From Solwaraspora sp. WMMA2065 (GTDB taxonomy: Bacteria > Actinomycetota > Actinomycetes > Mycobacteriales > Micromonosporaceae), in assembly GCF_030345075.1 (NCBI RefSeq), contig NZ_CP128361.1, positions 5,332,001-5,396,000 of the forward strand: a DNA stretch of 64,000 nucleotides. Reading direction: 5' to 3'. The position numbers and the translations under genes are program-made. Each line of letters begins with the position of its first letter. The stretch's first letter is position 1. Below the pieces are notes generated by a model, which saw only the letters and a program-made list of their open reading frames with translations, did no database searches and was not told where the DNA came from. This document shows positions 59,722-62,630 of the stretch, piece by piece.

Positions 59722-60710
59722 TCAGGTCCCCGAAGGGATACTCCCATCACGAAGAAGAGCGGCACCGCGCTGATCAAGTTGTTTAGCGAATGAGGGTAGG
59801 CGCTGGCCAACGCCACCCAGACGCGCTCGCATGTTCTTCACGGCGGCACGCGCCCGGCCCGACTTGACGCCAGTCATCGCGTCCATGGCCATGTTCCAGT
59901 TCGCGGCTGCCTCGCCGAGACGGCCCTGCGCGCACTGCACGTCGCCCAGGTTGGCTAACGTCAGCGTGTGAATACGGCGGTAGACATCTGAGTTTCGAGT
60001 CGCAATCGACCGGCGGAGCTGCATCTCGGCGCCCGACATATCTCCCAGATCCCGCAGGGCCTGTCCAGCTTGACTAGCAAGCGAGGTTTCCGTGAAACCG
60101 CTGGTCCGAATCCACGGCGGCTCCTCGTCCGGTGCAGATTCCGCAAGGCGCTTCTCGGCAGCAGAGATCGCCGTTGAGGTGCGTGTACGGTCACCTGTTG
60201 CCGCGTGACCCCGCGCCACGAGGATTGCGAAAAGAGCAGTGGCGGCCGGGGTGGAGCTTCCCTTCGACCAGCCGAGAGCGGATTCCGCGAGGTTGAGCGC
60301 CTGTTGCCCGTGACCGAGATCAACAGCCTGATGAGCCATCGCACGCAGAGTGAACGCTGCAAGTGCGCGGTCGTCGGCTTCATTCGCGAGCCGCAGTGAT
60401 TGGACGTAGTACCGCTGAGCTAGGCCGTGCAGGGACGAATCAAATGCTTTCCATCCGGCAAGGTAGGTCATCTCCGCAGCCAGGCTGAACATTGCCCTGC
60501 GTCCCGAGTCGGACGAGAACCTGCCGCGCAGATAGTCAGCGACATCTGACGAAAGGTATTGAATGACCGCAAGACGGGCGTGGCCGCCGCCGAACCGCTC
60601 GTCAGCTCGACTGAACACCGCCAGCATGTCTCGCACGGCGTCAATCTCGCTGCGGCCTACCGCGACCCCACCGCCTTGTGCGCGTCGCCCTCGGTCTGCG
60701 ACCTCCTGCC
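59722..60710 (-). pseudogene. 3' part of a TPR-containing regulator gene split by IS110
   Basis: The frame reads WQEVADRGRRAQGGG, DMLAVFSRADERFGGGHARL, then helical TPR-like repeats (AQRYYVQSLRLANEADDRAL, AFTLRAMAHQAVDLGHGQQA, RRIHTLTLANLGDVQCAQGR) to RLPSFAKQLDQRGAALL. This is the C-terminal ~330 residues of the actinomycete regulators that have an N-terminal helix-turn-helix. The N-terminal part lies at 62213-62630 beyond the insertion. Removing the element joins the two in frame as NEFWQEVADRG. Confidence 0.85.
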
Positions 60711-60742
60711 AGGACTCGAAAGACATCCCAGGAGCTTGAATG

Positions 60743-61975
60743 TCAAGCAGCAGCCTTGCTGAGGTGATGCGACCACGCGGTCGCCTCGTCGTAGACGGTG
60801 CCGGTCTTCAGGCATCCGTGCAGGATGCCGACGAGCCGGTTGGCGAGTTGGCGCAGCGCGGCGTTGTAGCTGGCGCCGCGGGCACGTTGCCGGTCGTAGT
60901 AGGCGCGGGCACCCGGCGAGGCCTTCAACGCGGAGAACGCCTGGGTCATCAGGGCGTCGATGAGCCGGTCGTTGTGGACGAACCGGGCCGCGACGGTCCT
61001 CTTCTTCCCGGACGCGCGGGTGATCGGGCTGGTCGCGGCGTAGTTCTTCCGGGCCTTCGCGGTGGCGTAGCGGTCGTGGTCGTCACCGAACTCGGCGAGC
61101 ACCCGGGCGCCGAGGACGGCACCCAGTCCGGGCTGGGACAGGATGATCTCAGCGTCCGGGTGCCGGCCAAAATGGTCCTCCACCTGCCCTTGCAGGGCCT
61201 TGACCTGCTCGTTGAGAGTGACCAGCAGGGCGACCAGGGCGCGCACCGACGCGGCGTAGGCGGTGGTGACCACGGCCGGCTGGCCGAGGTGCTCGGCACG
61301 CAGCACCGCCTGGATCGACGCGGCCTTGGCCGCGACGTCACGGCGCCGGGCCCGTTTGAGAGCGGCGCTGATCTGGCTGATACTCAGCCGGGCGGCGCTG
61401 GCCGGATCAGGGGCCTTCGCGAGGAGTTGCAGGGTGTCAGCGGCGTCGAGGTCCTCGAACGCCTCCAACGCCGCAGGGAAGTACTCCCGCAGCGCGTGCC
61501 GCAGCCGCTGCACAGCACGGGTGCGTTCCCAGATCAGCGTCTTGTGCATCCGGGTGACGACCTTGACCGCCTCGGCGTCCGCCGAGTCTCCGGCCATCGG
61601 GCTCAGTTGGTGCGAGTCGGTGCGCACCATGTCGGCCAGCATGTGCGCGTCGGCGGCGTCGCTCTTGGCCCGGGACACCGCCAGACGTTCCCGGTAGCGG
61701 GCCGCCTGCAACGGGTTGACCGGGTACACCGTGTACCCGGCGGCGACCAGCGCCTGCACCCACGGGCCCCGATCGGTCTCGATACCGATCTTCACCTGAG
61801 CAGCAGCAGCGTCGGCGTCGATGTCGTCGCCGAGCGCCGTGCCGATCATCGCGTGGAGCCTGGTGATGCCGGCGATGCCCTCGGGCAGCCTCGCCTTGGC
61901 CAGCCTGCGGCCGGAGGCGTCCATGAGCTCGACGTCGTGGTGGTCCTCCGCCCAGTCATCTCCTATGAACAGCAA
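60743..61975 (-). CDS. IS110-family DEDD transposase
   Basis: 410 aa from a TTG at 61975 with GGGAGAG upstream. The N-terminal RuvC-like DEDD domain has LFIGDDWAEDHHDVELMDAS (first D), VKIGIETDRGPWVQAL (E) and AVSRAKSDAADAHMLADM (D-x-x-D). The C-terminal Tnp domain has LSQPGLGAVLGARVLAEFGD, AARKNYAATSP-like residues and the serine-bearing ITRASGKKRTVAARFVHN. It appears intact. The IS110 transposase recombines DNA guided by an RNA made from the element's non-coding end. Confidence 0.94.
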   Translation of the reverse strand: MLFIGDDWAEDHHDVELMDASGRRLAKARLPEGIAGITRLHAMIGTALGDDIDADAAAAQVKIGIETDRGPWVQALVAAGYTVYPVNPLQAARYRERLAVSRAKSDAADAHMLADMVRTDSHQLSPMAGDSADAEAVKVVTRMHKTLIWERTRAVQRLRHALREYFPAALEAFEDLDAADTLQLLAKAPDPASAARLSISQISAALKRARRRDVAAKAASIQAVLRAEHLGQPAVVTTAYAASVRALVALLVTLNEQVKALQGQVEDHFGRHPDAEIILSQPGLGAVLGARVLAEFGDDHDRYATAKARKNYAATSPITRASGKKRTVAARFVHNDRLIDALMTQAFSALKASPGARAYYDRQRARGASYNAALRQLANRLVGILHGCLKTGTVYDEATAWSHHLSKAAA

Positions 61976-62212
61976 CGTCTCTCCCGCCTATTGAGTCGAT
62001 CACCGCTGGTAGCCAGGAGGAGAACCATCAGCGACCTAATGAAGCAGTGCTCACGCCGCGACCGGGCGGGCACGACATCCCATCAGCGATCAACTCTCCA
62101 CACCGACCAGCCGGGGCACGATCTTTCGTCAGGACTCGACGTCCAGGAACCCGGAGTGCTCACCGGCTGGCGGCTACCTACCCACCAGGAGTTTGCCGGA
62201 TGGCTCACTCCC
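61976..62212 (-). ncRNA. Candidate IS110 bridge RNA region
   Basis: The 237-bp non-coding left end is where IS110-type elements encode the bridge RNA. It contains TCGAGTCCTG (plus strand 62130-62139), identical to the right donor end and core at 60710-60719. It also holds CCTCCTG (complement of 62014-62020), which can pair with the CAGGAGG of the right target flank, and GAGTT as in the left target AATGAGTT. The exact RNA ends are not known. Confidence 0.55.
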
Positions 62213-62630
62213 AGAACTCATTAGGAACCGCGAGCGCAGCCAGCGAGTACAAGGCTTTGAGCGCGAAAGCTCGTCGCTCCAAGTCGGCCCTCCCGATCGT
62301 TACGAGGTTGGTGGCGCAGTCGTCCACCCACCAGTCGAGTCCGCCTAGGTCGGCTTCCAGGCTACCGTCCACGTCGAAGCCAAGGTCGGTCGGTGAGACG
62401 AGATGACCGAGTCGACGGCTGACCGCTTCGGCGAGGTAGCGAGGGGTTCGACCACTTGGCCGTACCCCTGCGACCCAGTGGCCGACGTGTGACCGATCGC
62501 AGGATCGCAGGTCGTCGTTGTGCTCGCGGGCGATGACTCGAACTGCTGCGGCACAGGCATCGTATGACCACCGGCACGCCTTGATCATCTCCCGCAGTTG
62601 CTCGTTGCGTTTCCTCTGCTGCCGTGTCAT
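62213..62630 (-). pseudogene. 5' part of the TPR regulator gene split by IS110
   Basis: Starts at the ATG at 62630 with GGGAGG six bases upstream. The helix-turn-helix region spans RNEQLREMIKACRWSYDACA, DRSHVGHWVAGVRPSGRTPR and YLAEAVSRRLGHLVSP. It continues to LYSLAALAVPNEFW, where IS110 sequence adds GAG and a TGA. A truncated DNA-binding protein of about 141 aa could still be made. Confidence 0.85.

What the first reader, a model, noticed from the sequence alone, without database searches (positions are those of the whole stretch)
61976..62212. Probable bridge RNA in the IS110 left end, with visible donor and target matches
Seen: the 10-mer CAGGACTCGA at 62130-62139 equals 60710-60719 at the right donor end with the core, and CAGGAGG at 62014-62020 can encode an RNA segment complementary to the right target flank. 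Known: IS110 transposases are guided by an RNA with separate donor and target loops. A 7-base match can arise by chance in 237 bp; the 10-base match is harder to dismiss.
Basis: partly seen in the sequence, partly recalled or inferred. Interest (0 to 1): 0.75.

Follow-up and report, generated by a model that had tools for sequence, protein, structure and literature searches.

The report
Guide RNA of an actinobacterial transposon
The stretch encodes a bridge RNA, the guide with which an IS110-type jumping gene chooses where to insert; it is a clear new example of a mechanism published in 2024, although the two short matches that drew attention to it are not the guides.

Summary
The bridge-RNA idea is right; the two matches offered for it are wrong. 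Nine near-identical copies of the element (seven in this genome, two in a relative) share 62225-60717 (minus strand) and sit in nine different sites, so the shared stretch starts at 62225, not 62212. The 10-mer is three shared bases plus seven of flank unique to this copy; it lies mostly in the target loop's apical hairpin, and matches that long occur in 168 of 2000 control draws. CAGGAGG overlaps structural helices. The guides are elsewhere: left target CCGGGTTC-CT, right target GACGAA-AG, left donor GGGATGT-C, right donor TCATTAG, around a CT core. Across 49 insertion sites guides match their own targets far better than permuted ones, repeated in 33 further sites. Donor guides and a handshake base covary. 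A 41-pair two-loop structure is supported by covariation in 58 sequences. TTGACA-N17/18-TCTAAT-like promoters appear at 56 of 56 modelled circle junctions; 1 of 55 integrated left ends has a comparable -35. New member of a known kind, the IS110-group bridge RNA; a helix closing both loops may be a structural variant.

The parts
60717..62225 (-). Sequence common to nine element copies (1509 bp); the insertion sequence from core to core is 62224-60721
   Evidence: Nine copies with nine different flanks; six of the nine (window copy included) are identical, the other three have 1, 2 and 3 substitutions; empty sites of other insertions
60743..61975 (-). IS110-type transposase, 410 aa; D7, E66, D106, D109 and S322 correspond to the DEDD residues and serine
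   Evidence: Pfam PF01548 and PF02371; aligns with the solved IS621 and ISCro4 transposases, the N-terminal part only weakly; positions; identity of the IS621 catalytic residues partly recalled
62008..62213 (-). Bridge RNA, approximate extent; 5' end inferred from the -10 box, 3' end from the closing helix
   Evidence: Covariation of 41 pairs in 58 sequences; ends inferred, not measured
62145..62154 (-). Left target guide CCGGGTTC plus core CT
   Evidence: Identical to the left target at 4-6 of 8 positions in each of nine sites; permutation tests
62123..62130 (-). Right target guide GACGAA plus AG (complement of core CT); complementary to target CTTTCGTC
   Evidence: First four right-target bases match in 9 of 9 own-type copies; permutation tests
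62074..62081 (-). Left donor guide GGGATGT plus C of core
   Evidence: Identical to the right end 60729-60722; its A/G variation agrees with the right end in 78 of 78
62036..62042 (-). Right donor guide TCATTAG, complementary to left-end CTAATGA (62224-62218)
   Evidence: The two donor bases after CTAAT pair in 83 and 79 of 84 instances, with three and two base types; the third pairs in 2 of 84
62035..62035 (-). Handshake base G after the right donor guide, pairs with target base C at 62225
   Evidence: 48 of 49 and 30 of 33 sites pair
62223..62224 (-). Core CT at the left end
   Evidence: Empty-site comparison of three other insertions of the element
60721..60722 (-). Core CT at the right end; left donor GGGATGT lies at 60729-60723 and right target TTCG at 60720-60717
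   Evidence: Copy comparison and empty sites of three other insertions
60741..60746 (-). -35 box TTGACA in the right end, overlapping the transposase stop codon
   Evidence: At least 5 of 6 consensus bases in 56 of 56 modelled circle junctions
62220..62222 (-). AAT of the left end; with T at 60723 and the core CT it forms the -10 box TCTAAT in the circle
   Evidence: Modelled circle junction
62172..62178 (-). 5' arm of the closing helix (GGTAGCC); 3' arm at 62014-62008
   Evidence: 95.8% of cells paired, 4 of 7 pairs with compensatory change; coordinates
62106..62171 (-). Target-binding loop: outer helix 62171-62156 with 62119-62106, apical hairpin 62144-62141 with 62135-62132
62017..62101 (-). 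Donor-binding loop: outer helices within 62101-62086 and 62032-62017, inner helix 62073-62066 with 62056-62047
59722..62630 (-). Host gene split by the insertion: pieces 62226-62630 and the part below 60717
   Evidence: Uninterrupted homologues in relatives; only a TPR_12 hit below Pfam's cut-off, so its function is open

Best explanation
The left end of an IS110-group insertion sequence encodes a bridge RNA. After excision the two ends join in a circle and rebuild a promoter (TTGACA-N17-TCTAAT) whose -10 box spans the CT core, so the RNA is made mainly from the circle. The RNA's first loop holds two target guides that recognise (C)CGGGTTC-CT-TTCG; its second loop holds two donor guides that recognise the circle junction GGGATGT-CT-AATGA. 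The DEDD transposase brings target and circle together, exchanges strands at the CT core and leaves the element between the target halves, with no duplication beyond the core. Shown by sequence comparison here: common extent of the copies, core, guide-target and guide-donor covariation, RNA structure, junction promoter sequence. Inferred, mostly from IS621: transcription, RNA ends, protein binding and strand-exchange chemistry.
For: Nine copies define the common stretch. Empty sites of 3 of the 9 insertions read left target-CCTTTCG-right target in relatives. Guide vs target over 49 sites: left 5.59 of 8 vs 2.67 permuted (24 classes), right 4.95 of 6 vs 2.29 (14 classes), 0 of 20000 permutations as high; other frames of the left guide give at most 3.08 vs 5.43. 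Second set of 33 sites, all with guide pairs not in the first: 5.32 vs 2.84 (27 classes) and 4.77 vs 2.21 (20 classes), 0 of 20000. Handshake base 48 of 49 and 30 of 33. Donor guides covary. Structure: 97.3% of cells paired, 24 of 41 pairs with compensatory changes, 150 such cells vs 33.7 shuffled. Junction -35 at least 5/6 in 56 of 56 modelled circles vs 1 of 55 integrated left ends. The RNA model matches 27 of 30 loci that the motif script had missed, one of them (L162) about 1 kb away from the transposase, and the seven own copies and nothing else in the own genome at E up to 0.1.
Against: No transcript or activity data. The single-sequence fold is only weakly more stable than shuffles (z -1.38, 17 of 200 at least as good). 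At this window's own site none of the 16 homologous loci examined shows CTTTCG at the corresponding place (position extrapolated in some); the nearest two read CCCCTCG, so the pre-insertion allele is inferred. Left target positions -8, -7, -6 match in 16, 24 and 27 of 49 sites, right positions +5, +6 in 34 and 12 of 49. Some sites match badly (L081, L118: 2 of 8). Handshake bases alone are weaker in a class-level permutation (157 of 20000 as high), and the second one pairs in 19 of 49.
Confidence: 0.96

Rival explanations
1. One reading: the 10-mer contacts the donor end and CAGGAGG the target flank.
For: The strings are present.
Against: Each match occurs in 1 of 9 copies; chance-level length (168 of 2000 draws); both overlap base-paired helices; the 10-mer spans unique flank and has the wrong sense for a right guide.
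Confidence: 0.01
2. The left end is a structured 5' leader or regulatory RNA of the transposase, and the protein alone reads the target motif.
For: The structure lies directly upstream of the transposase gene; no RNA was measured here.
Against: Guide bases change together with target bases across 24 left and 14 right guide classes and again in 33 further sites. The own element and those of G313 and G234 (89% and 86% protein identity) differ by one base in the right guide and by the matching target base (TTCG vs TTCA).
Confidence: 0.03
3. TTCG (60720-60717) belongs to the element, and the core is longer than CT.
For: All nine copies carry TTCG; the two nearest relatives of the window site have CTCG instead.
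Against: Empty sites of three other insertions already carry CTTTCG. The donor guides fit GGGATGT-CT-AATGA without it. Related elements carry other bases there that match their own right guides.
Confidence: 0.04

Closest known systems
IS621 bridge RNA and recombinase (IS110 group)
   Same: Left-end location, two internal loops with the 5' guide pairing to the bottom strand and the 3' guide to the top strand, CT core, handshake base after the donor guide, junction promoter, DEDD plus Tnp domains with the serine
   Different: Only remote protein similarity (E 8.4e-12); a helix closing both loops is supported here; right target guide matches mainly the first 4-5 bases past the core; the left guide's core-position bases are not CT in several relatives
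ISEc21 seekRNA (IS110 family, Siddiquee et al. 2024)
   Same: Upstream non-coding region makes the targeting RNA; circle intermediate with junction promoter; no target duplication (passages of PMC11187229)
   Different: Different target; not compared by sequence here
ISKrh6, IS110 family of Kocuria rhizophila
   Same: Actinobacterial IS110 element with a proposed guide-RNA region upstream of the transposase
   Different: Its ends were left to be settled by experiment in that paper (passages of PMC12500396); not compared by sequence here

Membership tests
IS110-group bridge RNA system | DEDD RuvC-like domain plus Tnp domain with catalytic serine | tested here: met
   PF01548 and PF02371 above cut-off; D7, D106, D109 and S322 align with IS621, the N-terminal alignment being weak by itself; E66 sits in the equivalent motif, alignment gapped there; IS621 catalytic residues partly recalled
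IS110-group bridge RNA system | Structured RNA in the left end, upstream of the transposase, with two internal loops | tested here: met
   By covariation; model matches at the seven own copies
IS110-group bridge RNA system | Left and right target guides covary with the insertion site | tested here: met
   49 and 33 sites
IS110-group bridge RNA system | Left and right donor guides match and covary with the joined ends | tested here: met
   right-donor count limited to the 84 of 95 instances with a single CT[AC]AT in the searched stretch (2 had none, 9 several); copies of one element at different sites count separately
IS110-group bridge RNA system | CT core shared by target and donor, no longer duplication | tested here: met
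   Empty sites of three insertions; at the window's own site the nearest relatives read CC at the core position
IS110-group bridge RNA system | Promoter formed at the circle junction | tested here: met
   Sequence only: 56 of 56 modelled junctions; activity not tested
IS110-group bridge RNA system | RNA is expressed, binds the recombinase and directs recombination | not testable with these tools
   Needs RNA sequencing and recombination assays
IS1111 group (RNA in the right end) | Long right end holding the RNA | tested here: not met
   20 bases lie between the transposase stop and the right core; the RNA is in the left end
Rfam 15 families | Match to a curated RNA family in the left end | tested here: not met
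   No match at E up to 1 in 61950-62240

The most novel reading that the evidence does not exclude
The element belongs to an actinobacterial clade whose bridge RNA is a structural variant: a conserved helix (62178-62172 with 62014-62008) closes target and donor loops into one three-way junction, and the CT core doubles as part of the -10 box, so that making the guide RNA and being ready to recombine are the same molecular event.
Probability: 0.35. Interest if true: 0.45.

Novelty: new member of a known kind. Interest (0 to 1): 0.33.

Why it matters
It gives a complete, testable guide map for an actinobacterial IS110 element and an alignment of 58 related bridge RNAs, many with their natural targets. 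Such elements are candidates for programmable insertion in high-GC actinomycetes. It also shows how easily short visual matches mislead, and how comparing many copies and relatives finds the guides.

Tried and rejected
Rfam for the left end: no family. Single-sequence folding: weak (z -1.38), so structure rests on covariation. A first motif pass was replaced; the next script failed on a coding error and was rerun. Motif extraction missed 9 of 72 loci in the first set and 31 of 80 in the second; 14 and 16 more were dropped for duplicate sites, short flanks or unclear ends. Of those 40 misses I gave 30 to the RNA model and 27 had a match at E up to 0.01. Of the matches listed by the family search only a part was fetched, mostly complete or multi-copy ones. 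Class-level permutation of the handshake bases alone is weaker than that of the target guides (157 of 20000 as high, 5 classes). A paper search for Ms AS-4 with three other terms found none.

Full report
What is there. The transposase at 60743-61975 (minus) is of the IS110 type (Pfam DEDD_Tnp_IS110 and Transposase_20) and aligns with the solved IS621 and ISCro4 transposases. The own genome holds seven copies of the element and one genus relative two.

Where the core is. A query of joined flanks found relatives without the insertion. Three of the nine insertions (L004, L006, L009; in L009 the left homology is good only near the junction) have empty sites reading left target-CCTTTCG-right target. 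The left end keeps C-CT-AATGA and the right end GGGATGT-CT-TTCG, so the shared core is CT. For the other sites I found no clean empty site with this sequence. At the window's own site the two nearest relatives read CCCCTCG, and none of the 16 homologous loci examined shows CTTTCG there; I infer that this strain's allele differed, which is a caveat and not shown.

The guides. With the ends known, four segments in the left end fit the IS621 scheme: 62154-62145 CCGGGTTC-CT (left target), 62130-62123 GACGAA-AG (right target), 62081-62074 GGGATGT-C (left donor), 62042-62036 TCATTAG (right donor). The nine copies carry the same left end, so guides do not change between copies; the test is across related elements.

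Covariation with targets. From 88 fetched loci of the family, 16 duplicates were set aside, 9 of 72 gave no motif and 14 were dropped, leaving 49 distinct sites. Left guides match their own targets at 5.59 of 8 positions against 2.67 when permuted among 24 classes; right guides 4.95 of 6 against 2.29 among 14 classes; no permutation of 20000 reached either. Shifting the left guide by one or more bases drops the mean match from 5.43 to 3.08 or less. The same extraction on 80 named genome loci gave 33 further sites, all with guide pairs not in the first set: 5.32 against 2.84 and 4.77 against 2.21, again 0 of 20000 (31 of 80 gave no motif or donor part, 16 dropped). In the first set right-target positions +1 to +4 match in 49, 46, 49 and 47 of 49 sites, +5 in 34 and +6 in 12; left positions fall from 48 of 49 at -1 to 16 of 49 at -8.

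Donor and handshake. The two donor bases after CTAAT pair with the right donor guide in 83 and 79 of 84 instances, with three and two base types; the third base pairs in 2 of 84. The variable A/G of the left donor guide agrees with the right end in 78 of 78. The base after the right donor guide pairs with the last left-target base in 48 of 49 and 30 of 33 sites, with C, G, T and A among the targets; the next base pairs in only 19 of 49. This corresponds to the handshake guide described for IS621 (passages of PMC11208158).

Structure. In 58 sequences, pruned at a pairwise score of 92%, 41 pairs in six helices hold in 97.3% of cells; 24 pairs show compensatory changes; shuffled and slid controls are far lower. 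The structure was derived from the same alignment, which favours it against the slid controls. The donor loop has outer and inner helices. One of the six, a 7-pair helix closing both loops, is kept in 95.8% of cells, with 12 compensatory cells against 2.8 shuffled. The passages I read on IS621 describe a 5' stem-loop and two loops, not such a helix; figures are not held, so I did not see them.

Promoter. Joining the ends in a script gives TTGACA-N17-TCTAAT for this element. At least five of six -35 bases are present in 56 of 56 distinct modelled junctions (spacing 17 in 45, 18 in 11), against 1 of 55 integrated left ends; TCTAAT itself in 51 of 56. TTGACA overlaps the TGA stop codon, which accounts for three of its six bases.

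Spread. The RNA model finds the seven own copies and no others in the own genome at E up to 0.1, and has a match in 23 of 396 genomes of the phylum at E up to 1e-5, own included, with filters that lose weak matches.

Literature. PMC11208160: abstract, section 12 and passages; PMC11208158, PMC11187229 and PMC12500396: passages only. Searches for IS110 with bridge RNA, with Streptomyces, with Micromonospora and with Actinobacteria and for seekRNA showed no listed title or abstract start that names this element; only open-licence full texts were searched. The junction promoter, the CT core and the guide scheme are published for other members, so novelty is low. The host's identity is not given by the tools; relatives with names are actinomycetes, the closest a Micromonospora.

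Noticed in passing
L234 (G003:C1:1207000-1216000), about 3.8 kb shared with L235, L236, L237: A same-genus genome carries four near-identical copies of a composite: IS110-type transposase, methyltransferase-like ORF, second IS110-type transposase. In the two copies scanned the RNA model has weak matches upstream of both transposases (35.9 and 24.1 bits). The second transposase's 1.46 kb part also occurs alone (L258, L259). How the composite moves is unresolved.
   Followed up: partly
window 61055-61136, + strand: Rfam Ms_AS-4 (actinobacterial sRNA) matches at 74.9 bits (gathering score 50) antisense to the transposase gene; it may be a real antisense RNA or only conserved coding sequence.
   Followed up: no
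window 59722-62630, - strand: A host gene is split by the insertion; uninterrupted homologues with open frames of about 450-550 aa exist in relatives. Function open: a TPR_12 hit below Pfam's cut-off only.
   Followed up: partly
L091-L095 and L182-L186 (the latter named Phytohabitans flavus): The IS110 copies of this genome have the same target bases on both sides at each of the five sites, as if inserted into a repeated sequence; the named loci were dropped as duplicate sites.
   Followed up: no
L028, L040, L044, L047, L096, L111, L134 and others: The two core-position bases at the end of the left target guide are not CT (CA, CG, CC, TT, GG) although the DNA core is CT, so pairing at the core may be dispensable on that side.
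   Followed up: no
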